From Thoreauomyces humboldtii (taxonomy: Eukaryota > Chytridiomycota > Chytridiomycetes > Spizellomycetales > Powellomycetaceae), in NCBI GenBank assembly GCA_027596035.1, contig JADGJA010000472.1:1-17479 (forward strand): DNA of 17,479 nt, in the 5' to 3' direction. Made by a program: the position numbers and the translations under genes. Within the stretch, counting starts at the first letter, position 1. The number at the start of each line of letters is the position of its first letter. Under the pieces are notes generated by a model that saw only the letters and a program-made list of their open reading frames with translations, was not told the origin of the DNA and did no database searches. This document shows, piece by piece, positions 222-17,479 of the stretch.

Positions 222-3200
222 ATGGAATCTCATTCAAATTTCAATTTATCTCGGAATCGTTCACGGCTTCGTGGCAAATCGAATAGTCGTTACCTGCTTA
301 GAAGGGCTTCCACCACATCTTTATTGGATTCAAGCGCCACAAAAGCACGCGATGTGAGGGAGATCATTGCAGCCTCGATTTACTCGATGTAACGCTAAAT
401 CAATCACGCTCCAGGCTCTGTCCAATGAAAATGAACCTCCGAGCGAAACCCGAGGATATGCGACAGGGCTGTCCACAAACACAGCCTCCCGCCGAAAGAA
501 CAAGATAAAGCGCAAAGACCCTTTGGTCGAGATTTACGGAGAAGATGTAGATAGGGATGAAGAAGGGAAATGGACCGATGTGGGTATGTTCCAGCAATCC
601 GACCAAAACTGCATTCTGAGAGGCTGATGTTGGCCTGCAGCTTTCGAGAGGCTCAAGCAAAAGGCCGAGACGAACATGATCGAAGCATACGTCCACAAAG
701 AAAGGAGCGTCGACGTGTCAGCCGACCACATCACAGACGTTCATGTAGGATTCTCTTTCCAATTTGAGGCCTTCTGATATGTGCAATGGCTGACTCTCCC
801 ATGCTGGTAGCGCTTGCTATTTCATCCAGACTTCATCCTTCTCTCTTACAATGTCGACAGAAGCCGCTTTCAGGTATGCGTTACTCTTCTGCTTTGCTTG
901 TTTCACGCCATGATCTTAGGCTGACACTTCTGATAGACGATGCATTCGGCAGCAAATGATGGTTTCTACGTGCCCAACCCGCCATCGACATCGCCGCGGA
1001 ACCTGGAGAGAGTAGAGAAGCGTTTGATCGCCACGGAACCCAATGCGTAGGATACCCGCTGTTATGTCACTTTGATATCCAGCGCTGACTTGTCCATAAA
1101 CAGAGGTATCCAGTGGTTCGATCCGTCTTCGTGCTTGAACGTTCAGCCGGACCCCCTGGCTTTGGAGCCTCGACGATTCATACGGCCAGAGCCTACCATA
1201 TTATGGCACAACATGAGGACTTACCCCGATATGTTCTACGATGCGGAAGGAAGTTTGCCGGACATGCAAGCTGACGAGCTTGCACTGACAAGACTCGTGA
1301 AAGCGGTGCCCTCACCTTTCGCCTCAGTCGAAGATAGTCCGCTGGAGACCTATACTCTGGCTTTCGAGATTGGTACGCTCAGTCTTCAAGATCATCCATG
1401 GATGTCAGACGAGATGAAACTGGCCCGGAGCTTGGAGAGCAACGTCTCCACTCTCTCGGAGCGCGCTCGTGGTCATATCATAGAGAATCTCGACAGAGAG
1501 CTGCTCAAGCTCAGGACGGAATACCAGGCTCGGCAAAGCACACGTCCTAATCCGCTCGGTCCGCAAACCCCGGCTTTGGGGCCTGACGGCATATATTGCG
1601 CACGTCCCGCTATGAGTGAGGAGTCTCAAGCGGACGAGACGCTAAACGAAGTCAAGCTCCGGCTTCAGCTTCTGGACCGCATCAAGAAAACTAGACAGCT
1701 GAGAAACACTGAAGCCCAATGCGATCTCCTGCTCGAATTTCGGATACTCCAGGACTGGGAACATCTCCAGGAGATTCGTACCACCAAAGGATTTTCTGCT
1801 ACAGCGGTGGAGATACAGGTTCATACTAGTATACCAGATCCGGATGAGGTACTTTCACAAACCTAGCTGTGCCCCGGAGCGAGGCAATCATCTCAGTTGT
1901 ATTGTTGAGAGTAGGTCACAAAGTGGTTCGACACCGAGGTTGAAAACGAGCTCACCGATTTGTGTGAGACTCGAAATCTCAGCAACCTGCAGCTCCGCTT
2001 GCTCACATTGTCAGATACTGAGGAAACTGTTGGGGAGAAGAATCGCTATCAAAAGTCAGAAAGAAGGAAAAGCAAATCGACCAATGCACGAAAGCAATCG
2101 TTACGTGCACGGTCCAGTGATGATATGACAAGTGGCCAACTGAGGGCCTTAAAGAATAGGATTGTTGAGGTGAGCATAGCTAGGCTCCAACAAGGGTTTA
2201 GCGGCAATCAGGACCTAATTCATCCGTGCAGAGACTGGAAGCGAGTTATAGAGCCGCAGGGTCTCCGAAGTTCTCATTTCGATGCGTTCAATCGAGAGGT
2301 GCACAACCTTTCCAGGACGTAACACTGGTAGAGTATAAGCAGAAGATCAAAGCGGCTTCACAAAGTTACTGACGTTCATCTCAGCTTAGCACCATGCAGC
2401 CAGCTCCTCCACAGCTGTCTCTGCGCATCCTGTACAATAGAAAGGAGATCACGCGTACGGCACACCACTCTATCGATTTGCCATCATCAACGGTGAAGTT
2501 CGTCTATCTGTCTCAAAGCTTCACAAGATTTGATCTACCGAGCATCAAAGCCGCACGACGGAGGAGAAACGAGCATGGACTTTTGTTCGCGGTGGAAGTC
2601 AAGGAGGTGCCGCAAATCATAGAAATAGAAATATACGAAACGGTATCTTTTCCGGTTTGAGTGAATTTTTGACGCCCGCGCGCAACTTATCCCCTTGATA
2701 TCCTTAGACACTTCTAGGAGATTCAGTGTTTGCGACAATTCCCGTACCAGTTCCGGCGTCCACTGACGCTGCTCAGTCGATTGATCGTGAACCCAGCTCT
2801 CTTCAATTCGCTGGACGCTTCAACAAGTTTCCGGAAAAGTGGTCATCCGGAGCACTTCGTGTCTCTTGCGCATGGGGCGCCGACAGCTCCGGCAGAATCC
2901 TTGGCCCAACTTCTACAGGGTCAGTAGTCTTATTTGAAGAATGGCAAGGATGACATTCTGAACGTGTAAAGTTTTGGAACGTCCTAGACGAGAACGACCG
3001 TCTCCCGGTCACGAACTCGCTCTCGCAAGCTTGCTGCGCCCATCGGGGGTTCTGAACGCTTGGAAAGCTTGGGTACGTGGTGACTTGTAGTCAAGTCTAT
3101 GTAATCGCCGTTAACTCATATCGGCCGCTCAAAGCAATGGGACCAAGAAGCTTCGAGAGATCCCAACGATCCTCGCACGCAAAGTTCGTGTCAATTACGG

Positions 3201-5959
3201 CTTTTTGGGAACTTGACAACAGCGCAAGCTGCAAGTTTCCAGAAAGAGCACTTTCGTCTCGAGATTCCGCGATGGATACGCACTATGTCCTGGGACTTGA
3301 AGGTTCGGCTTGAACGCAATCTCTTGATTATGGTTGGATTTGCTTGCTGATTAGCAAGATACCAGGGCGATAGTCATAGGATTGAAGCACGCTTCCGATT
3401 GTTGACTACCCGCAACATTAAACGCGCGCTGGGCGCCAGCTGCGCCTCCTTGGCGATCCCTTTGCAAGATCATGAAATCGAGGCTAGTCTCGTGCAGGAG
3501 ATGAACCGCAGTGAAAATCAGGTAGGTTATGTGCACTTCAGGCATCTTTTCCGTTTTGCGGCTTTGACAGGTAAGGGTAACGCTGTCAATAGCTCCAAGA
3601 CCCTGCTCCACTTACCGACGAGATTTTCCCGGGGTCGGTCATGTCACTTGGACCGCCGCAACCAAGGGTCTTCCAAGATGATGTCCCGCTATTGCGACGG
3701 CTCCGCAGTCACCCTCTCCTTCGACGCTCTCATCAGCCTCGGGCAAAGCGCCACGAGGACTATATCCGAGAAGAGCGTTTGCTGCCGGCACCCGATGAAA
3801 AACTGTTTTTCGCCGATTGGTTCAACACTCGCCGCCCCCTCTGTCCTTCACGAGATGATCGACGTGCATTGACTGTCGTGGGAGATCAAGTGGAAAACTG
3901 CAAGCTTCTGATACATGTGTTACGAGGCACCAACATCCCCGCGCGGAAATACGGAACTGTCAGTGATAATCAGGAGCAGATGGTACCGTTTTACCTTGGC
4001 AAAATTGCCGCAGATGTCATCCAAAACTCCTGACAGATTTTGTTTCAGATGGTGAGACCATTTATTCAGGCCCAATTCCAAGGGGATATCTGTCGAACTA
4101 CAGCTGCAGAAGGCTCGAATCCACAGTGGAATCATACGTTGAGTCTAGATGTTCTTCTTCCCGAAGACCCGTTCCGAGGGGGTGCCAGAGATGCTGGTGC
4201 GGAGCTAGTTCGCATCGACATATTCGACGAGATAGCCGTCAATCTCCTGCAGGTAGCTATTCTGCCTTCTTTTCAGTTTGGTATAAGTACCTACTTATCT
4301 AGTCTGCAGCTCGAGGATCGAAGTCGATTTGTTCATGAAAGAAATGACCGTGCATGGATTGGTTCCGTCACGATACCTTTCGCTACAATTCAGCAACAAG
4401 TCCGAGTACGTATATCCGGAGCGAATAGTAGCTGCATGGTCGGGGTTGACGACCAACCAATTTCGATAGCTTGCAGGAGCTTTTCATGTAGCGTTACCGC
4501 ACGCTCTTGTCGGATACAAAGACTCTGGCGAAAAAGTAGCCCCAGCGAGTGCTGCCCAGGTGACAAGTCTTCAGATGTTCATCACGGTGGATCCTCCGAC
4601 AGCCCCTCCAGACCCCGAAGATCTTCAGGTGACTCCTGGCCCAGCTTAAAATCTTCTGTTTCTGCCGAGGTGTTGCTCATGTAATTTAATTCAGCTGGAG
4701 CCGCTAGATCCTCCATTCCTGCAACGTGCGTCGGTAAAGTTTCAATCAAGCCTCCCTAGCTCTGCTCAAAAGCGAGGCTCATCAACCATTGTGGAGACGC
4801 TATCCGGGCACACCGCTCTTGCAACTCGATACATTCGACCGCAAAAGCCTCCTTCGACCCTCCCGCTAGAGTTATATGCGCTACTCCGCTACGTATCTCT
4901 GATTCCATACCTTCCCACCAACTCGCTGTATTCTCGCAATGTCTGGCTGACCTCGGATCAGCTCTTGAGTCTCGGTGCTGGCGGCTCCGTTGAGCACGCT
5001 ATCCTTCTCTGCAACTTTTTCCAATGCTGTCCCCGGATACATCGAAGTCAGGTTGTGCTCGGGAAAGATGTACCTGGCAGGAGCATAGCCTGGGTTCTCT
5101 GTGCCGCACTCGAGGATCAGCGACCCATGCTCTGGGATCCGCTGGAAGGGAAGAGCTGGGACAGCAACGATGTTCAGTGTCCGCTTCTGGAGATTTCTCA
5201 GATCTTCGATCAAACCAATGTGTGTCCCTTTCGAAGACTTTCGCTGCTATAACAGGAGCACCTAACATCTCTCTTTTAGATATGGGTTAACACCCAGCTA
5301 CATTGCGACCCAGCGCGTATGAAATTTGATCTCGAAGTAGCCCGCCACTGGCGACCCTTCTTTCGACAGGGTATTTCAAGTGCTGAGACTCAAAGCATCC
5401 AAGTAAGGATGACAAAATCCCCACGCCTCACAAGCAACGTTTTCTGACCATTTTCTAGTCTGAGCAGCTTATTTACCAACCGGCAGATCCGACGAAAATA
5501 ATTGATCGACAGGTCCGGCTGGAAAAGCTTCTCATCAACAGCATCGAAGACTGGAGGGGAACTCGTCTCACACGCTGGAATAGGTAGGTCAAGAGGAATC
5601 AACTCTAAAGCACAAGTCAGAAGCTAACGTTCATCAGACTTGCATCCCGCACTTTCACAGGCGCCCTGGCACACATGGAAACCAGTCTTCTTCAGAGCAG
5701 GCCTGGCGAGCGAACATCCGACATTTTGGCCCGAAATTCCGATTTTAACAAACTCAGCGCGGTCTACGATCTACGAGGAGGTCCGCTGTCATTTCCATAC
5801 ACCGACACGGGCGCAATTCTCAGCGCCGTGCGAGCCACTGACATACACAACTGCGATGACGGAGAGTGCGAGTTTGCATGTGGAGTGTATTTTTGCGGTT
5901 ACGATGGAGACGTTTCGGGAGTCTGGATATGGGTGGCATGCTTATTCCGAAAACGGTGA
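222..5959 (+). CDS. CC2D2A: CC2D2A-like ciliary transition-zone protein (C2 plus transglutaminase-like fold), 21 exons
   Basis: In animals CC2D2A belongs to the MKS module of the ciliary transition zone and acts in the gate at the base of the cilium or flagellum. Exons read here: 222-353, 415-583, 641-744, 811-873, 937-1046, 1104-1848, 1915-2169, 2212-2298, 2385-2642, 2708-2919, 2988-3072, 3135-3302, 3366-3521, 3593-3982, 4049-4252, 4310-4409, 4477-4628, 4695-5219, 5280-5402, 5459-5583, 5638-5959. All phases agree and give 1494 residues; human CC2D2A is about 1620. The N-terminal third is charged and helical, with HPWMSDE and EYQARQ motifs typical of the family. The VFATIPVPVP segment and DPNDP motif follow. 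A C2 domain starts near residue 951 (LLIHVLRGTNIPARK, then VRPFIQAQF, TTAAEGSNPQWN, DIFDE). The C-terminal transglutaminase-like region has RYVSLIPYLP, SVEHAILLCNFF, LTRWNR and the terminal VWIWVACLFRKR, all closely matching the animal protein. Many introns carry CTGAC or CTAAC before the acceptor. Least certain are the start (ATG at 222), the donors after exons 3 and 14, and a possible extra intron in exon 9. Confidence 0.93.
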
Positions 5960-6161
5960 TGTATGCACGTCTCGGCAATGGACGACAAACACGGAGGAGG
6001 TCCTTCTTGATCCTGGTTTCCCACGCAAGTTTGCCTGCTGCTCCCGCTTCTGAATATGGCGTCTCTGAGTTGCGCATCTTCCAGTTTGATCCCCAGCACA
6101 TAAGAGACTGGCTTTAGCAACGGATTACCGGCTCCGGTTCTCTCATGCTGCGGTTCTCACA
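5960..6161. other. Convergent 3' intergenic spacer
   Basis: This 202-nt gap separates the stop of the CC2D2A-like gene from the stop of the small minus-strand gene, so it should hold both 3' ends. No further gene or RNA was recognised in it. Confidence 0.5.
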
Positions 6162-6571: not shown

Positions 6572-7150
6572 GCTTGAACCTGTCGACCTTCTTTCTGTAT
6601 GCCCAGACTCGCAAGTATATCACAAGTACGCTGTGTTTTGCTCAGAGAGCGTGGGAACCAAGGTGAAAGCCTAAGGACGGTCTTCGGTGAACTCAACCGA
6701 GCGTAGACGGCGCTGTCGGTTTTCCTCTGCGTTGAGGGCGTTGAGGCAATCAGGTACCGCTAACTTAGGATCGCCTCGTTTCTAGATCGAGACCAACGGC
6801 AAAGTCACGGATACCCGAGAAGCCGAATTTTCATCAGATTCCATGTAATCACAGAACATAAGGACTCGAAGAACTAACAGACGTTGAAAAGAGCTTTTTG
6901 ATCGTTTCATACTTCACCACGATGCGAATGACTAAAATCGGGGTTGCTGACTTGCTTTCCTTCTACTCAGGCAAGTCTTACATGTGACTTTCCAGCAAGA
7001 TTAAGACCAGCCATAAGCAATACCTTCATCAAGGCATTGTATACATTGTATTCAAGAGGCACAGCCAGGCCGCGGGGACATCCCAAAGCTGCTAGGTAGG
7101 AAATTGGACAGCTTTCTGTGCGGGATGCGCAAGCTTGAGCTTTACTGGAA
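6572..7150. other. Region without a confident gene
   Basis: This is the presumed promoter and 5' flank of the small minus-strand gene, followed by sequence of mixed composition. Short open frames exist on both strands, but none has protein-like composition together with splice support. Nothing further was recognised. Confidence 0.4.
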
Positions 7151-7232
7151 CTCAATGAATCTAGCAGGAATCTGGACGCCGTATCAATTGTTTGACTATC
7201 GCCGGCGTCCAGACTCCTGCTATGTTCATGAG
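7151..7232. repeat. Short imperfect inverted repeat (pre-miRNA-sized hairpin)
   Basis: The 20-bp arms at 7162-7181 and 7203-7222 are reverse complements with one mismatch (left arm tagcaggaatctggacgccg). They are separated by a 21-nt loop. Weaker pairing continues outward into 7151-7161 and 7223-7232. The fold would be about 82 nt. It lies just outside the large palindrome that follows. Confidence 0.75.
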
Positions 7233-7299
7233 GGCGGACTGCCGCCGGTGAGGCGCCGCCAGCACTGCCAACATGGGAACTCAGCAAGAACGTCACATC

Positions 7300-7444
7300 C
7301 CCCAAAACTGGACAAACTCTACCCGGGTACTCGGGGGTCGTCGGCCATCGTCTTGGGTGGAGATATGTCGTCCGCCATGTGGATCGAGGCATGTCTCCAA
7401 TCCCTCCTTCCCCGACGCGCCCGTGCAGCCGGCGTACCTATGCC
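7300..7444 (+). repeat. Left arm of a large inverted repeat; inverted partial copy of the HExxH gene's last exon
   Basis: Positions 7300-7400 are the reverse complement of 7586-7686 over 101 bp with a single difference (in the ccatgtgg/ccacgtgg context). Similarity then continues, weaker and gapped, to about 7444, pairing with 7534-7585. In plus-strand frame this arm still reads the same peptide as the last coding exon of the minus-strand gene (SPKTGQTLPGYSGVVGHRLG). It is not attached to any recognisable upstream exon, so it is a gene fragment rather than a second gene. The high identity suggests a recent duplication with inversion, or gene conversion between the arms. Confidence 0.9.
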
Positions 7445-7475
7445 GCGAAAATACCACAAGAAAACTACCTTAATC

Positions 7476-8913
7476 TCACGAGATCAAAGCGGAGAACATC
7501 GCCGAAAGGGGTAGCAGATGGTATCTGTACGCAGGCATAGGTGCGCCAGCTGCAAGGGCGCCCGGTGTTGTCGGAGAAGGTGGGGTTGGAGACATGCCTC
7601 GATCCACGTGGCGGACGACATATCTCCACCCAAGACGATGGCCGACGACCCCCGAGTACCCGGGTAGAGTTTGTCCAGTTTTGGGGAATGCGATGGCTGC
7701 GAGTGTCGGAATGCCTGCCCAAAAAGCTGCACTCAGGAGGGTGGTCAGATGACAAAGAGGTACGAGGCGGAGGGACTGGTCCACATCCTCAAACGTCAGA
7801 GCGAAGATTTCCTGGAATAAGAAAATGAAGGAAAAGTAGAAGTTAAGTAATGCATGATGAAAGCTGGAAAAGCGACCAGAGACCCACCGGCCTTCCTTTG
7901 ATGAGCCGGTCGTCGGACACGATTCCAGTGACTCCCCCCAAAATGTTCAATTCCCATGCTTCGCCTGCCTCCCCGTGAAGGATTCCATGGGGAGTTCCCC
8001 AAGCGTTGCCATTTGGCTGCAAAGTGTTCGCAAACCCGAGCCTGCAAAGAATGACAACATTATATACGTCGCTGTGATCGAACACGCTGCAGTTTCTGCA
8101 ATGACTCACTTGAACTGAAGCATATGAGCCAGTTCGTGCATGACGACGAAGGGCGAACTCGTAGGCAAGGATTACGGCTTCCGTCGGGTTGCTGGGAGCG
8201 CACATTGCCCTGAACAGGCGCCCGGATATCAAGATGGTGACAGGGCCCGCGGTGTTGAGGAGCGTCATCCCTTCCCACGATTCCGACTCGACAGCGTCTG
8301 AGACGGCAAGCAGGGGCCAATTGGCGATGATCTGACCTCGAATCTGTGGAGCAGTAAGAAGAGGTGTTGCCCCGCGTCCGCTGGTATGGCTGGTTAGATG
8401 AATGACTTCCAGCCTGGTGGAGGGCTCTGTGGCGGGGATCGGCAGGCACTGCGGTTCGACGCGGGACCGGCGAACGGTCCCCTTTCGAGTCTGACACACA
8501 GCGTGTGTTCCTGTGCGGTTGCAAAGCTCGACATGACCAGCTTTGGCACCTACGAGTACGGGACGGTTCCACGTTGCGCAGTTGTTACGAAGCTTGCGTG
8601 TCGTCCTCGTTCGGTTTCGAATTCGTTCGGATGTGGCGTGGGAACTTCGGCGCTTCGCTAGCAAATGCACGGAGGCAGTAGTCGTAGATCGTTGTGCTGG
8701 GTGTCCGTGCGGCGGTCTGGATCTTTCCCTCGACAGCTGAAGCGGAGAGACGTGGCTTTCTGCATCACGTGCAATGGTCGTGGGTAGGGTGTAACACAGG
8801 ATGTCTGTAGTATTATCGCGTGCAAAGACAATGTGCAATGAAGGCCCAACGCGAGCTATGCTCCACTCAATACAGCTAATTTTTCGCTCACAAACGTTAA
8901 AATTTGTCAGCAC
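7476..8913 (-). CDS. Putative HExxH zinc-peptidase-like protein, about four exons
   Basis: The best model on the minus strand is 8913-8204, 8157-8110, 8041-7888 and 7811-7476. This keeps phase throughout and gives about 415 residues. The central exons carry SPFVVMHELAHMLQFK, an HExxH zinc-binding and catalytic motif near residues 244-248. About 27 residues later comes HGEAGEAWELNILGG, whose acidic residues could supply the third zinc ligand. This pattern recalls uncharacterised fungal HExxH proteins, but I cannot name a family. The last two introns have good signals (GTGAGT...TTTGCAG; GTGGGT...TTATTCCAG with CTTAAC). The first intron (8203-8158, 46 nt, GTGCGC...ACGAG) is weak and was inferred because the frame must shift between the well-formed upstream segment (SESWEGMTLLNTAGPVTILI) and the HELAH exon. 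A real frameshift is the alternative. The N-terminal 150 residues are Arg/Thr-rich and of doubtful reality, and another intron may lie near 8345-8410. The last exon contains an inverted-repeat arm. Confidence 0.6.
7534..7686 (-). repeat. Right arm of the large inverted repeat, inside the last exon of the HExxH gene
   Basis: This is the partner of 7300-7444. The core 7586-7686 is 101 bp long. The arm is coding sequence of the minus-strand gene, whose stop codon is at 7476-7478, in the 89-nt spacer between the extended arms. The gene runs from right to left, so its transcript would pass through this arm, the stop codon and then the left arm, giving a self-complementary 3' end. Confidence 0.9.
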
Positions 8914-9082
8914 GTATCATATATGCATTCCATATATATATATAAACAAACAAACGACCGCGGTTTCGACCGCTGAGTAGAATGTCAGCCTAAAAGCACC
9001 CGCTTCGCAGCTCGACCCGCGCTTGCATCAGGCAGCCTCCACCCGCGCATCCCCTCTTGCGATCGATCCCGTACCCTGCACA
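8914..9082. promoter_or_regulatory. Divergent promoter region between two putative peptidase genes
   Basis: This stretch of 169 nt separates the proposed start codons of the minus-strand HExxH gene and the plus-strand serine protease. It contains an alternating AT tract (8933-8946, tatatatatataaa) followed by an AAACAAACAAAC run. The tract lies 137 nt before the protease ATG at 9083, a reasonable TATA-box distance with a leader of about 100 nt. It is only about 20 nt from the ATG at 8913 on the other strand, suggesting that the true minus-strand start may be further downstream. Confidence 0.5.
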
Positions 9083-10309
9083 ATGTCCAAGTACCCGACA
9101 ATCCTGATCCCGGCCGAGGACGAAGGCGGCGGTTTCCATTTGGCGCAGTTCTACGAGCAGGAGACGGCGCTGCGCTTCCGCGGCAGCAGTGTGCCTCTGG
9201 GCTGGAAGTTCGCCTATCAGTACAACCCGGAAAAGAGGAAGCTCACATACAGTGCGAAGTACCTCGAAAAAGTTCATAACGATGCTATCAAAGTCAACGA
9301 CTACGACAACCCATACGGCGCCTTGATGGTTAGGGGCCCAAAAGATATGGGTCCTTTCTTGCAGGCTACCACGGTGCTCCTCCGCGTTACGGGCCCATCC
9401 GAAGACGAGGCCGCAACCCCCCCGTCATTCCATGGAACGGCATTCTATGTATCACCCAGCATCCTCCAGACTGCTCGCCATAACATCCAGCCGATGGAGA
9501 ACGTTTCAGCTGCACGTCTCCAGTTCCGGACCTCTCACAATACCTCCGACAGCAATGCCTTGGTGCGGGGTTTCAAAGCTTCCCCTATCGAAGCCGCCGA
9601 CGACTCCGCGAATCTACCAGAGCACCTGCGACACATGCTTCCGGCTGAGGGATCCGAGGATGAAGACCCTGTGGATCACTCAGCTTGCAAATATCAGAGC
9701 GATTTTGCCTTCCTTTCGAGCAGCCGGGCGTGCTTGAAGGTTCTGGTGCCTGGAGTCCCGAGCAGTCCCACCGCCTTTATTGTCGCTGCCGGATACCCAG
9801 GCGCACCAAGAGCCAAAGACGCCTTGGCGGCCGCATCCTCCAAGCTTTCGACGTTGCGCCACGACGTCGATCTATACGCGAATGAACTTACCACCATGAC
9901 AGCGAAGCTGGGACGGCTGTTTCGCGAAGACGTCTTGAACGTCTCACCCGGCTCGATCGTCACGCCCGGTCAACGAATCTCAACGCACGACTGCACGACA
10001 CTGCCAGGCTATTCCGGAGGGCCCCTGATACCAATCGCCACCCCTGGCGTCTTCATCGGTCACCACATTGCGGGGTCATTGGCGGTGGATGCCGATCAGA
10101 ACCTTTTCCTGGCTGCGACGCACCCCGCATATGTGACTCACTATCGGACGCACGTCCTTCCATCGCTGCTGAAAGCCCTCGGCGAAGACCCGGACCTGCT
10201 GACACAACCGCAGAAAAGGTGCTTCTTGGAATGGTTGGAGATCACGTGCGGCGTCGCTGGACCAGACCTTGTAACTGCCATGACCGCCGCCTGCTTTGAT
10301 CGATCATGA
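9083..10309 (+). CDS. Trypsin-like serine protease, intronless, no signal peptide
   Basis: The 408-residue frame has the three landmarks of a chymotrypsin-fold protease in order. The His site is FHGTAFYVSPSILQTARHNI (catalytic His about residue 133). The Asp is in QSDFAFL (about 207). The Ser site is LPGYSGGPLIP (about 311), followed by FIGHHIAGS, the strand that normally lines the specificity pocket. The spacing between His, Asp and Ser is wider than in trypsin, with acidic inserts before the Asp. The start was set at ACAATGTCC (9083), which has an A at -3; an in-frame ATG at 9023 would add 20 residues. Neither start gives a hydrophobic signal sequence, so the enzyme is probably intracellular or a housekeeping-type trypsin-like peptidase rather than a secreted digestive one. 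Substrate is unknown. It is divergent from the HExxH gene. Confidence is high for the fold and moderate for activity. Confidence 0.82.
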   Translation: MSKYPTILIPAEDEGGGFHLAQFYEQETALRFRGSSVPLGWKFAYQYNPEKRKLTYSAKYLEKVHNDAIKVNDYDNPYGALMVRGPKDMGPFLQATTVLLRVTGPSEDEAATPPSFHGTAFYVSPSILQTARHNIQPMENVSAARLQFRTSHNTSDSNALVRGFKASPIEAADDSANLPEHLRHMLPAEGSEDEDPVDHSACKYQSDFAFLSSSRACLKVLVPGVPSSPTAFIVAAGYPGAPRAKDALAAASSKLSTLRHDVDLYANELTTMTAKLGRLFREDVLNVSPGSIVTPGQRISTHDCTTLPGYSGGPLIPIATPGVFIGHHIAGSLAVDADQNLFLAATHPAYVTHYRTHVLPSLLKALGEDPDLLTQPQKRCFLEWLEITCGVAGPDLVTAMTAACFDRS

Positions 10310-11855: not shown

Positions 11856-13875
11856 ATGGATCGCAGCTCTGAGGGGTTCGTCGCAAAGTCTGGCAACCAC
11901 AAGTCGGTCCGTCTTTTCTGACGCAACCTTTCTGCTTCCAGCTGCCTGGAATCTTTCCTGGAAACCCCAGCCGCCGGAGAAGACTCGAACGACAAGCTTC
12001 AACGAGGTTCCGTAAGGATTGCAGTCGATGAAGATAGATTTAAGGTCAAAGAACGAAACTACACGCAGCAGTATGCGGGTATATACTACATGCGACTCAA
12101 CATGCTAAGGCCAAGAGCCATGGCAGCCGCGACAGAACGGTGGGGGAAAAGCGAATGTATGTGGGTTGCCATGCAGAGCTCCTGGATCTCTGCTAGCTCG
12201 CTGAGTATGGTCTTTTCAGCAAACCCAACCTTGGTGTCGAAGGTCCTCGACGTGCTCGCCGGTCAAGTGTGCTACATTGTCGGGACCGTCTACGTCGACA
12301 TGCCGCTCAAACCCAACATTTTGGACGAAGTCACTCAAGAAGTAATCCCCATTTGTGTCCCTCTCTTCTAGGCGTTCTCTCTGACGCTGATTTCGCTCGC
12401 ATAGCATTGGATCATTGCCCCACCACCACGGGAAAAGTACGCCACAGAGGAGGACACGGTGGTTCTTGAAGACGAGTCGGGTCGTGTGAAGCTTACGGGC
12501 GCCATCCTAAAAAGCACCATGCTGGTCACGGGTAACGATCTTCAGAAACCCTCGGCCTTCTAGCTAGCGGCATGATCTCACTCGAGCCTGGCTTTTTCAG
12601 GCATTGTGATGGCTGTGTTGGGATGCGAAACGGCAGCGGGCGAGTTCGAAGTTGTCGATATCTGTTATCCAGCCTTGAAACCACAAAAACCGTTTCCCGA
12701 CGCGACCGGTAAACAATACGCAGTCTTCCATATCCTCGAAGGGACCTCTGATGGAGAAGCTATTACCTTCTTAGAGGATAAGTTTGTGGCGCTTGTGTCT
12801 GGCCTGAGCATCGGAGCCGACGACGTGGGCCTCGAACTACAGCTTCTTACCGATTACCTCACCGGCGAGATCGGCACCACGCAAGTAAGTTTCTGCGCAC
12901 TAGTCTTGAAAGGTTTGATCTGTCACTTACAGCGGCCCGAACAGGATCAAAAGCAGAGCGCAAGCATCGTGCGTGTAGTGATTGCTGGCAACAGCGTCTC
13001 GAAACCAAAGCCTGTTGCGGACGACAAGCGACCGGTGCGGCGCGAACGCGATTTGTGATGCAAGTGGCCGAACCTAACCTGACTCTCCTCTAGACTCGCA
13101 ACAAATACGGCGCCGAGACAGCTATGTTTGATGCCGGGCCTCTGAAGGAACTCGATAGCTTTCTCGCCGAGATTTGCGAAACCGTGTCCGTCGACCTATT
13201 GCCAGGACCGACCGACCCAGCCAACTACTCTCTACCCCAACAGGCTATACATTATGCCGTCTTTCCCAAAACGTCGCGATATTCCACATTCCATCCCGTG
13301 ACGAATCCTTACGAGGCCGAGATTGAAGGCGTGAGGTACGTTGGCGACGTACTGGACTGCGGTATTTGAGACTGATCCAGTACCTCGGAAATTTGCAGTC
13401 TTCTTGCAACCTCTGGTCAGACACTCGATGACATCTTCCGGTTCGTTGCAAGCGAAGATCGCCTTAGCATGTCGGAGAAGACGTTACAATGGTCACACCT
13501 AGCACCCACCGCGCCGGATACCTTATGTACGTGGCGTCCGTTATATGGTCGCCGACGCCAGACTGACCGATCGATTCTTTCTCAGGGTGCCATCCTTATA
13601 AGGAAGATGACCCCTTCGTTTTGAAAAACAGGCCAAATATCTACGTAATAGGGAATCAACCAAAGTATCAAACGTCCGTTATCGAAGGTAAGAAGGTGTC
13701 TTGCTCTCTTTGTCCCAGCACTAAGCAGGTGGCTGAAGCCGTTTGATGCAATGCAGACCAGCTCGGGCGCACGCGCGTTGTTATTCTGCCCTCCTTTGCG
13801 GCATCGAGGACCATTGTCCTCGTGAACCTGCGAACATTAGAAGTTTCGCCGGTGAACTTCCTCACCCAGTTCTGA
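11856..13875 (+). CDS. POLD2: DNA polymerase delta small (second) subunit, POLD2/Pol31/Cdc1
   Basis: POLD2 is the B subunit of DNA polymerase delta: an OB fold plus a phosphoesterase fold that has lost catalysis. It bridges the catalytic subunit to the third subunit in the nucleus during replication. Exons: 11856-11902 (uncertain), 11942-12156, 12220-12341, 12405-12531, 12601-12708, 12775-12884, 12945-13034, 13094-13335, 13399-13526, 13586-13687, 13757-13875. The total is about 469 residues, like human POLD2. Landmarks in order are NYTQQYAGIYYMRL, VDMPLKPNILDEVTQE, APPPREKY, VVLEDESGRVKL, VMAVLGCE, KFVALVSGL, VRVVIAGNSVS, PGPTDPANYSLPQQ, VTNPYEAEIEGV, TSGQTLDDIFRF, APTAPDTLWCHPY and VNLRTLEVSP. 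The first exon is the weakest part: ATG at 11856 with a 39-nt intron (11903-11941), or a donor at 11876 giving a 66-nt intron; both keep phase. An alternative acceptor at 12932 would add four residues. Confidence 0.95.
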
Positions 13876-15302: not shown

Positions 15303-17091
15303 CTATACGACCGCGTAGAACCCATCGCGATGTCCACCATGCGAGCTCGTCGACGTGCCGGACCCCACGTCACTGCCAGGCGTAGTGCAGCCGATATTCC
15401 CTCCGTGCACCAGCATCAGCGGTATCTCGTCTCTGGGTCCCGATGCTGACCGAACCACCGTGACGGGTTGCAGGGCGTGATCGAGGCAAAAGGCAGCCAC
15501 CGAGCCGCATTGGATCGATGTGGATGCGGAGGTTGTCTGGGAGGTCGGACTGTATGAGGGGAAATAAAAAAGTTAGATCGCATGAAACCCGGTGTCTCGA
15601 ATCTGGAGTACAGCTTGTTACCGTTTGATGGCGCCCAGCCCCCGATTCCCGAGGACAAGGCGGTCTGCCTGTAGCTCACTGGACTACAGAAGCAACCGAA
15701 AACAGTGTTAGAAAACGTTTGAAAAGGAAAATGATTGTTCAAGAATGGATTCCTTTCGCACCAGCAAACACAACACGTCCCTTGGCTGCCCAATCTTGAC
15801 TTTGGCTGTTACGGCCACGTCATTCGTGTCAGGAGCAAGCCTTCGTAACCGGGGGATGTAGTGGTCTAACAGCTTTGATGCCTATTGCAGTTCAGAGTAT
15901 ATCAGCACCATTGTCTTTTGGTCAACTGCTCTTCATCGCATGTGCAAAACATACATGATCCTTTAGCTCCATCTCCAGATACCGAGTTCCGTTCAGCTGA
16001 TCCGCAACGTACTGAGCTTTTATGCTGACCTCGTCCAGTATCCTCGCGACGACGAGGTTGTCCCCATGGCGAAGCGCAAATTTCGCCGTCCAGTCGAAAG
16101 CACCGCTGGAATGGGGAGACCCATCGATCCCAACCAGGAAAGTCTGCCGTCTACTGGTAGACCGTGAACGTTGCTGCTGCAAAGGTTTCGCTTGGGGCTG
16201 AACGGAAAAGCTTTTTGGTAGCTCTGGTAGGACAGGTGCAGAGTCGTTCACATCCCAGGCTGTGGCAGTGGTTTTTTTCGGTGATATCTGATGAACATGG
16301 CGAGAGTGCGGTGGGACGGGTGGTGGCGTCTTCGATCCGGCTCGATAGGAGGAAGTGGCGGGCGAGGACAAAGTTGATGGTGGGGATGGTAGGGATGCTT
16401 CCAGATCATCTGGATCCAGATCCATCGGTGTAGGCATCTCCAGGACGGATCGAAGCGGTCGGGTCCGGCGAGGGAGGGAGCGCGGCGAAGAAGGTGGAGC
16501 GCCTTGAGAAGGGCTTCGGTGGTGTTGCTGCTGCGAGTGCTCGCTCGAGGATGGGGATGGCGATCTTCTTTGTAAAGGGTGTGGCTGAGGACGTGGAGGC
16601 TGCGCGGAAGGTGCGGCGACGGAGGTGTCCTGTCCTGTACGACGACTTCCGACCGGTGATTCTGGCCGACTACCTGTTGACGGTCGTGCTTGTGGCTGCT
16701 GCTGTGATCCTAGCGGAGGAGTAGCGGCCCTTCGTAGATTCTCACCATAGGAGTTTGGGCTGGAGGCTGGTGGGGAACGCATTGGCGGCGGCGGCAACGG
16801 TACAGCATAGACCGGAGTCGAAGGCAGGGACCAGAGAGCTGTGGGTGGCGACTCGCCTCCACTGCTGGCAATAGATGGCCTTCGTAACCTATGCTTGGTT
16901 TCGATCAAAGGTCGTACATCATGTTGCTGGGACAGCTGTGGTTGAGAGCCCAGATGTGACACCTCGCTTGCCAGAGGGTGATGATCCGACGGTAGGGGCA
17001 GCGAAGCTCTTCGCGAGAGCGACAGACTAGGCGGAACAGGCGACAGCATCGCCGCTTTCGAAGAGTATATCGTAGATGACATGGCATGCAT
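15303..17091 (-). CDS. Universal stress protein (UspA-type) domain with a long disordered N-terminal region
   Basis: Exons on the minus strand are 17091-15955, 15881-15762, 15683-15622 and 15549-15303, giving 521 residues with consistent phases. Two introns have CTAAC-type branch motifs. Residues 1 to about 315 are low-complexity (Pro, Ser, Gln, Arg; PLPPPPMRSPP, SQQQHH), with SP/TP sites typical of phosphorylated disordered regions. The Usp domain occupies about 317-490: QTFLVGIDGSPHSSGAFDWT, then VVARILDE, then ADRLVLGNRGLGAIKR, then CGSVAAFCLDHALQPVTVVR. This is the usual alpha/beta nucleotide-binding fold, and fungal members often have such extensions. The normal G-x2-G-x9-G-S/T ATP-binding spacing is expanded: GNRG is followed by 20 residues, not 9, before GS, and the insert sits at the start of the last exon. 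A Gly/Ser/Thr-rich tail follows. The start could also be the ATG at 17082. Function is probably stress signalling, but the partner is unknown. Confidence 0.87.
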
Positions 17092-17479
17092 AGATCCTGT
17101 ACATGCGTAGAGAGATACTGATCAGGGAAAGAACCAGAACCCAAAGATGGAACCGGAGGATGTTGAGGATATGGGGAAAGGCGAGAACCAACCAGTATCT
17201 TGATTTGCTTACTGTGTCCTCATTCATGGACCCTTCCGAGACGTGAAGCAGAGTGACGGCCCCCCTCCCATGTGGTGGGTGAACCGTCGTTGTTGCCCAC
17301 CTATAACCAGACCACCCACCCAGGCGGCTTTCTTAGCGGAGTTTCTTTCCCGCTGACTCAGAACCCTGTCGAACCCTTTTACATTTGATCACCCACCAAA
17401 GTAAGTGAAGCCAAAGTAAGCGTGGGGTTTTTTTAATAGCGCTAACTACCCCGGAGGTATCCTGCCTCTGCCTCTACCC
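17092..17479 (-). promoter_or_regulatory. Upstream region of the universal stress protein gene, with a possible 5' UTR intron
   Basis: On the minus strand a candidate 116-nt intron (17212-17097; GTAAGC donor, TGTACAG acceptor) ends 5 nt before the ATG at 17091, suggesting a spliced 5' UTR. An upstream ATG at 17227 would then begin an out-of-frame upstream ORF overlapping the main start. Further out lie several CCACCC boxes (17311-17322, 17391-17397). GGTGGGTGA (17274-17282) and TCACCCACC (17389-17397) are exact inverted copies. CCAAAGTAAG occurs twice (17396 and 17411). Confidence 0.4.
17354..17360. promoter_or_regulatory. TGACTCA element (Gcn4/AP-1-type bZIP site)
   Basis: TGACTCA is the consensus site of fungal Gcn4/Cpc1 and AP-1-like bZIP factors. 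It lies about 265 bp upstream of the universal stress protein ATG. A 7-bp match can occur by chance, so this is a suggestion, though a stress-responsive bZIP site would suit the gene. Confidence 0.35.

What the first reader, a model, noticed from the sequence alone, without database searches (positions are those of the whole stretch)
7300..7686. Near-perfect 101-bp self-complementary hairpin at the 3' end of the HExxH gene
The last coding exon of the minus-strand HExxH gene contains 7586-7686, and an inverted copy with a single difference sits at 7300-7400, downstream of the stop codon. Any transcript extending about 180 nt past the stop would fold into a long double-stranded RNA linking coding sequence to its own 3' UTR, with the stop codon in the loop. 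In a fungus with Dicer this could produce small RNAs that silence the gene or related paralogues. The high identity implies recent origin or ongoing gene conversion.
Basis: partly seen in the sequence, partly recalled or inferred. Interest (0 to 1): 0.75.

Follow-up and report, generated by a model that had tools for sequence, protein, structure and literature searches.

The report
Inverted copy of a gene's tail
In a chytrid fungus, the last part of a little-known gene has been copied backwards just behind the gene, so an RNA read through both would fold into a long double-stranded hairpin; it is probably a copying accident in a fast-changing gene family, but could be the seed of a small-RNA switch.

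Summary
In detail: 7300-7400 and 7586-7686 are reverse complements with one mismatch in 101. The inverted repeat is longer than stated (124-nt arms 7293-7416/7570-7693, 95%; weaker homology to about 7468/7521). The genome is Thoreauomyces humboldtii (Chytridiomycota). A third partial copy on contig C107 continues into the gene beyond the palindrome, and a paralogue on C115 supports the reading frame. So the right arm is the gene's own last exon and the left arm an inverted duplicate in its 3' flank, not a MITE. Identity is patchy (1/101 mismatches in the core, 6/50 plus gaps further in), as expected if one arm was rewritten from the other. The genome has Argonaute, tandem-RNase-III (Dicer-like) and RdRP genes, so a read-through RNA could be diced. 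No 21-mer of the arms occurs in the eight other family loci tested; only the C107 fragment shares any, so silencing of paralogues is not supported. The gene's frame appears broken just before HExxH. A paralogue on C662 carries an unrelated inverted duplication of its own CDS end, over the stop codon. Most likely this is mutational turnover in a birth-and-death family that incidentally makes a potential hairpin-RNA precursor. No RNA data were available.

The parts
7293..7416 (+). Left arm: inverted duplicate of the gene's last exon, in its 3' flank
   Evidence: 124 nt, 95%
7570..7693 (-). Right arm: original copy, inside the last coding exon of the minus-strand HExxH-family gene
   Evidence: C107 homology runs past its outer end into the gene; paralogue supports the frame
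7300..7400 (+). Core of left arm, 1 mismatch in 101 with 7586-7686
7586..7686 (-). Core of right arm
7417..7468 (+). Diverged inner extension of left arm (substitutions, gaps)
   Evidence: translated match to about 7468
7521..7569 (-). Diverged inner extension of right arm
7476..7478 (-). Stop codon of the gene, in the loop
7476..7811 (-). Last coding exon of the HExxH-family gene
7812..7887 (-). Predicted intron
   Evidence: GT..AG
7888..8041 (-). Coding exon; 49-51% identical to the C115 paralogue over the matched part
8042..8109 (-). Predicted intron
   Evidence: GT..AG
8110..8157 (-). Exon with the HExxH motif
8158..8203 (-). Frame break before HExxH: a weak 46-nt intron or, more likely, a frameshift (removing it leaves an 18-residue gap against paralogues)
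8204..8586 (-). Upstream coding part of the HExxH-family gene (start not determined)
7155..7229 (-). Second, separate hairpin 247-321 nt past the stop (20-bp continuous stem); only itself found in the genome search

Best explanation
It is a local inverted duplication: part of the last coding exon of an HExxH-family gene was copied in reverse into the 3' flank of the same gene. The copy was later partly rewritten so that a 101-nt core is again almost perfectly complementary, most simply by DNA-polymerase template switching (snap-back synthesis) or gene conversion between the arms. The family shows birth and death, with fragments on several contigs, and a paralogue (C662) shows an independent, nested inverted duplication of its own CDS end. 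The hairpin is therefore most likely a mutational by-product. If a transcript runs about 180 nt past the stop it would be expected to form a duplex of well over 100 bp that the Dicer-like enzymes of this fungus could cut. The small RNAs would match this gene and the C107 fragment, so any effect would be mainly self-silencing in cis. Shown: the repeat, its origin from the gene's own exon, the patchy identity, the RNAi genes, the second case. Inferred: template switching, dicing, self-silencing.
For: Right arm is gene: C107:13185-13367 matches window 7591-7773 at 93%, past the palindrome's outer end into the exon, and the C115 paralogue has VTMLSGAFWAGTPS where the window has TTLLSAAFWAGIPT in the same frame. 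Left arm is the duplicate: its homology stops at 7293 and the search with 6900-8000 found no other copy of its flank. In the 103 nt shared by all three, the arms differ at 3 positions from each other and at 6 each from C107 (counted). Patchiness: 1/101 mismatches in the core, 6/50 inside, Fisher p 0.0055; a stretch that clean arises by uniform scatter of 9 mismatches in 158 columns with p 0.011, gaps ignored. C662: 45-nt arms with 1 mismatch, 31-nt spacer holding a further partial inverted copy, stop codon within the arm, -91.7 kcal/mol, z -12, not found elsewhere. RNAi genes. Template switching as maker and homogeniser of inverted repeats is described in PMC8794818 (abstract) and PMC8604942 (abstract and passages).
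Against: No ancestral sequence without the duplicate is available (no relative is held), so the event cannot be dated or its junctions checked. In the passages of PMC8604942 that I saw, inverted-repeat arms of 7 to 16 bp and spacers up to 70 are discussed; this one is far larger. One more case among five other family 3' ends is not by itself a significant excess (p 0.08-0.21). C115, C1 and the C354 C-terminal copy have no strong 3' inverted repeat. No transcript or small-RNA data.
Confidence: 0.6

Rival explanations
1. A functional young hairpin-RNA (endo-siRNA) locus: the 3' read-through transcript is diced and the siRNAs repress this gene and transcripts over the C107 fragment, kept by selection because this family needs silencing.
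For: Piwi, RdRP and paired RNase III genes present; very stable hairpin; 23 21-mer positions of C107 match the arms, longest run 31 nt; none of ten poly(A)-like hexamers before the left arm's end; a paralogue has a similar architecture. Drosophila hpRNAs with arms from an exon of a neighbouring gene are known (PMC10317233, passages).
Against: No 21-mer match in 8 of 8 other family loci tested. The C107 fragment shows no sign of purifying selection (4 synonymous, 10 non-synonymous differing codons, 4 and 7 without the last three codons, which lie past the end of homology) and no gene was shown there. No expression data. Host gene seems broken.
Confidence: 0.2
2. A MITE or fold-back transposable element inserted over the gene's end.
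For: Palindromic shape; a partial copy elsewhere.
Against: The C107 copy has one arm only and continues into the gene instead; the right arm is coding sequence with a supported frame; genome DNA search found 2 contigs only (that search skips very common words).
Confidence: 0.04
3. Assembly artefact (chimeric or snap-back join).
For: 823-contig assembly; snap-back artefacts are known in amplified libraries (recalled).
Against: The arms differ at 6 of 124 positions and diverge further inside with gaps; an artefact would be expected to be identical.
Confidence: 0.06
4. The stem serves as an RNA element of the 3' UTR (3'-end formation, stability, localisation) rather than a Dicer substrate.
For: Hairpins lie at or past the stop in C415 (two), C662, and a 17-bp one in C1.
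Against: The C1 hairpin is within background (31.9 bits, against up to 36.5); C115 and the C354 C-terminal copy have none; the arm sequences of C415 and C662 are unrelated; no Rfam match at gathering score in the window.
Confidence: 0.1

Closest known systems
Inverted-duplication origin of plant miRNA genes (model of Allen and colleagues, as told in PMC3237417; passages)
   Same: A gene segment next to its own inverted copy gives a hairpin with extended similarity to the gene
   Different: Here the duplicate is joined to its own source gene's 3' end with the stop codon in the loop; no small RNA shown; a fungus
Drosophila hpRNA loci, e.g. D. simulans hp58 (PMC10317233; passages)
   Same: Inverted fragment of an exon of a nearby gene; RNAi genes present; fast-changing gene families
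   Different: hp58 is a separate locus one gene away from its source, recognised from RNA data; here one arm is the gene itself and nothing is shown beyond sequence
Template-switch mutations at inverted repeats (PMC8604942, abstract and passages; PMC8794818, abstract)
   Same: Make reverse-complement copies and homogenise the arms
   Different: The cases in the passages I saw are much shorter; here arms are 124 nt
Coding palindromes of Nematomorpha mitochondria (PMC6649704; abstract)
   Same: Long inverted repeats overlapping coding sequence
   Different: There both arms code for conserved protein in organelle genes; here one arm is non-coding flank
Phytophthora 21-nt small RNAs from inverted repeats and gene families (PMC3804510; passages)
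   Same: Inverted repeats and families with pseudogenes as small-RNA sources in a microbial eukaryote
   Different: Sequenced small RNAs there, none here

Membership tests
Endogenous hairpin-RNA (hpRNA) locus | Long inverted repeat able to form extended dsRNA | tested here: met
Endogenous hairpin-RNA (hpRNA) locus | Host has Dicer and Argonaute genes | tested here: met
   (domain matches; helicase and PAZ domains of the Dicer-like genes not tested)
Endogenous hairpin-RNA (hpRNA) locus | Transcript spans both arms | not testable with these tools
   no RNA data; only absence of ten tried poly(A)-like hexamers before the arm's end
Endogenous hairpin-RNA (hpRNA) locus | Dicer-dependent small RNAs from the arms | not testable with these tools
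   no small-RNA data
Endogenous hairpin-RNA (hpRNA) locus | A target in trans with small-RNA-length complementarity | tested here: inconclusive
   C107 fragment matches (23 21-mer positions); 0 of 8 other family loci match; no gene shown at the C107 fragment
MITE / fold-back element | Both arms occur together at several unrelated sites | tested here: not met
   one palindrome found; C107 has one arm plus gene flank
Template-switch inverted duplication | Reverse-complement copy adjacent to its source | tested here: met
Template-switch inverted duplication | Patch of higher identity inside a diverged inverted repeat | tested here: met
   (limits chosen after the fact)
Template-switch inverted duplication | Ancestral state without the copy seen in a relative | not testable with these tools
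   no relative of this genome is held
Known HExxH metallopeptidase family (Pfam) | Profile match | tested here: not met
   0 of 4 members match any Pfam family at E up to 1; no match among PDB sequences at E up to 1

The most novel reading that the evidence does not exclude
Members of a fast-evolving, so far orphan HExxH gene family of this chytrid repeatedly acquire an inverted copy of their own CDS end behind or across the stop codon. Their transcripts thereby carry built-in dsRNA tails that feed Dicer and hold the family in check by self-silencing.
Probability: 0.1. Interest if true: 0.75.

Novelty: new member of a known kind. Interest (0 to 1): 0.4.

Why it matters
If diced, it would be a natural self-silencing gene in an early-diverging fungus caught near its birth: source exon, inverted copy and RNAi genes in one genome, with a second independent case in a paralogue. 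It would make the birth of hairpin-RNA genes testable in a chytrid. If not diced, it is still a clear example of how inverted duplication and arm rewriting build long hairpins at gene ends.

Tried and rejected
A fourth intron (7763-7715), which would put the right arm in another frame, was rejected: the C115 paralogue aligns with the unspliced frame across it. MITE and fold-back element rejected on the C107 copy. Rfam: nothing at gathering score in the window. Plasmid DNA collection: no match. Homologues outside the species: none at E up to 0.1 with the four-member alignment; two T. humboldtii proteins only (only the 7995 candidates sharing most words were scored). Structure prediction of P0001 with a 2-sequence alignment was useless (mean pLDDT 30.1), so no fold search was made. 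The codon comparison between C107 and the window was uninformative (4 synonymous, 10 non-synonymous differing codons, the last three past the end of homology). A C354 hairpin (44.6 bits) was not counted as a family 3'-end case because it lies about 1.3 kb upstream of the family fragment there. The background sample is 22 loci that I chose: RNAi-gene loci, eight contig starts and C107, which itself holds two family fragments (one inside the sample); about 1.6 kb is counted twice through overlaps, and further overlapping RNAi loci were left out.

Full report
OBSERVATION. With seed 12 and minimum 20 nt the window holds one inverted-repeat pair, arms 7293-7416 and 7570-7693; a smaller hairpin at 7155-7229 shows with shorter words. 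Within the pair 7300-7400 and 7586-7686 differ at 1 of 101 positions. Gapped alignment extends the homology inward with substitutions and an 8-nt gap to about 7454/7527, and a translated search to about 7468/7521. The minus-strand RNA 7270-7715 folds into one long stem, -352.5 kcal/mol, z -29.7, 0 of 100 shuffles as good.

ORGANISM. The window is the whole of contig C415 of a 20.67-Mb, 823-contig genome. My gene model on contig C115 is 100% identical over its 325 residues to nr protein HKX48_003162 of Thoreauomyces humboldtii, on a contig of the same length, 30,660. A second family protein, HKX48_000007, lies on a 136,349-base contig, the length of C1. This is a chytrid, Spizellomycetales.

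WHICH ARM IS THE ORIGINAL. A third copy, C107:13185-13367, matches window 7591-7773 at 93%: the right arm plus 80 bases of the gene beyond the palindrome. A protein search extends this to C107:13171-13374. The frame of the last exon is supported by the paralogue on C115, which aligns across the same stretch, and the C-terminal ends of the window, C1 and C662 proteins also look alike (PLSAMFS, PLKALFS, PPLGSIF). The right arm is therefore the gene and the left arm its inverted duplicate. In the 103 nt shared by all three copies the two arms differ at 3 positions from each other and at 6 each from C107 (counted).

STATE OF THE GENE. Three introns were used to join the exons, but the one just before HExxH (8158-8203) has a weak donor, and taking it out leaves an 18-residue gap against the paralogues. 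A frameshift is more likely, so the gene may be a pseudogene. No protein record for it came back in three searches (the query carried a C-terminal end that I later rejected). The family has no Pfam or PDB-sequence match.

THE FAMILY. HExxH-bearing members lie on C415, C115, C1 and C662. Fragments lie on C354 (three places), C107 (two places) and at the end of C185. No homologue outside T. humboldtii came back (capped candidate list). C662 has its own inverted duplication: 45-nt arms with 1 mismatch, spacer 31 nt with another partial inverted copy, the CDS end and stop codon within the arm, z -12. It shares no 21-mer with the window's arms and was found nowhere else. Of six family 3' ends that I could read (C415, C662, C1, C115, C354:7228, and the degenerate C107:22380), 2 carry a strong inverted repeat. 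C1 has only a 17-bp hairpin about 110 nt past its stop, within background. In 125,862 bases of 22 other loci the strongest inverted repeat scored 36.5 bits; this sample is not random, includes C107 with one family fragment, and counts about 1.6 kb twice. Leaving out the index case, one in five others is suggestive only (p 0.08-0.21, assuming about 2 kb per locus).

HOW IT AROSE. Mismatches are uneven: 2/7 at the outer end, 1/101 in the core, 6/50 inside (Fisher core against inside 0.0055; clean-stretch simulation 0.011). One older duplication followed by rewriting of one arm from the other explains this. Template switching is described as making and homogenising inverted repeats (PMC8794818, abstract; PMC8604942, abstract and passages). 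The nested copies in C662 fit repeated snap-back synthesis. This step is inference.

WHAT IT COULD DO. The genome has Piwi-domain matches on six contigs, RdRP on two and RNase III pairs in single open frames on C306 and C716, with a further pair of matches in separate frames on C88. A read-through RNA would thus meet an apparently complete RNAi system. Possible targets by 21-mer identity are this gene and the C107 fragment; none of the eight other loci holding family members or fragments that were tested has a match (L037, L044, L048, L045, L060, L065, L072, L073). No purifying selection is seen on the C107 fragment. Silencing of paralogues is therefore not supported, and self-silencing is possible but untested.

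COMPARISON. It resembles the inverted-duplication route to plant miRNA genes (PMC3237417, passages) and Drosophila hpRNAs born beside their source gene (PMC10317233, passages). It differs in that one arm is still the coding end of the gene itself. Searches of the paper library for chytrid small RNAs, hairpin RNAs and inverted duplication, fungal endogenous hairpin RNAs, template switching at inverted repeats and chytrid palindromes showed no listed title or abstract start describing this arrangement. I saw listings, and abstracts or passages of the papers named, not whole papers, so absence from print is not shown.

VERDICT. A real structure with a well-supported origin, most likely a by-product of template switching or conversion in a fast-turning gene family, with a modest chance of being a nascent hairpin-RNA gene.

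Noticed in passing
window 7155-7229: A second hairpin past the first (20-bp continuous stem, z -8.6), only itself found in the genome search.
   Followed up: partly
window 1051-6053, + strand: Open frames of what may be one gene, with a CEP76 peptidase-like domain (PF24656, 62.8 bits) and a C2 match below cut-off, resembling the ciliary protein CC2D2A (name from recall); it would converge tail to tail with the HExxH gene.
   Followed up: partly
window 8981-10306, + strand: Trypsin_2 domain protein (28.5 bits, cut-off 27.6), divergent from the HExxH gene.
   Followed up: no
window 15922-17121, - strand: Universal stress protein domain behind a long proline/serine-rich N-terminal part.
   Followed up: no
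window 12576-13058, + strand: Weak matches below cut-off to DNA polymerase delta and alpha/epsilon small-subunit domains.
   Followed up: no
L047:2902-2958 (C354, about 3992-4048): A 57-nt hairpin (44.6 bits) upstream of a family fragment, stronger than anything in the background sample.
   Followed up: no
C354:7228-7563 (L060): A family C-terminal end that continues in frame into unrelated sequence, perhaps a fusion.
   Followed up: no
C107:13171-13374 and C107:22380-22733: Two fragments of different family members about 9 kb apart on one contig; the second match has an in-frame stop.
   Followed up: partly
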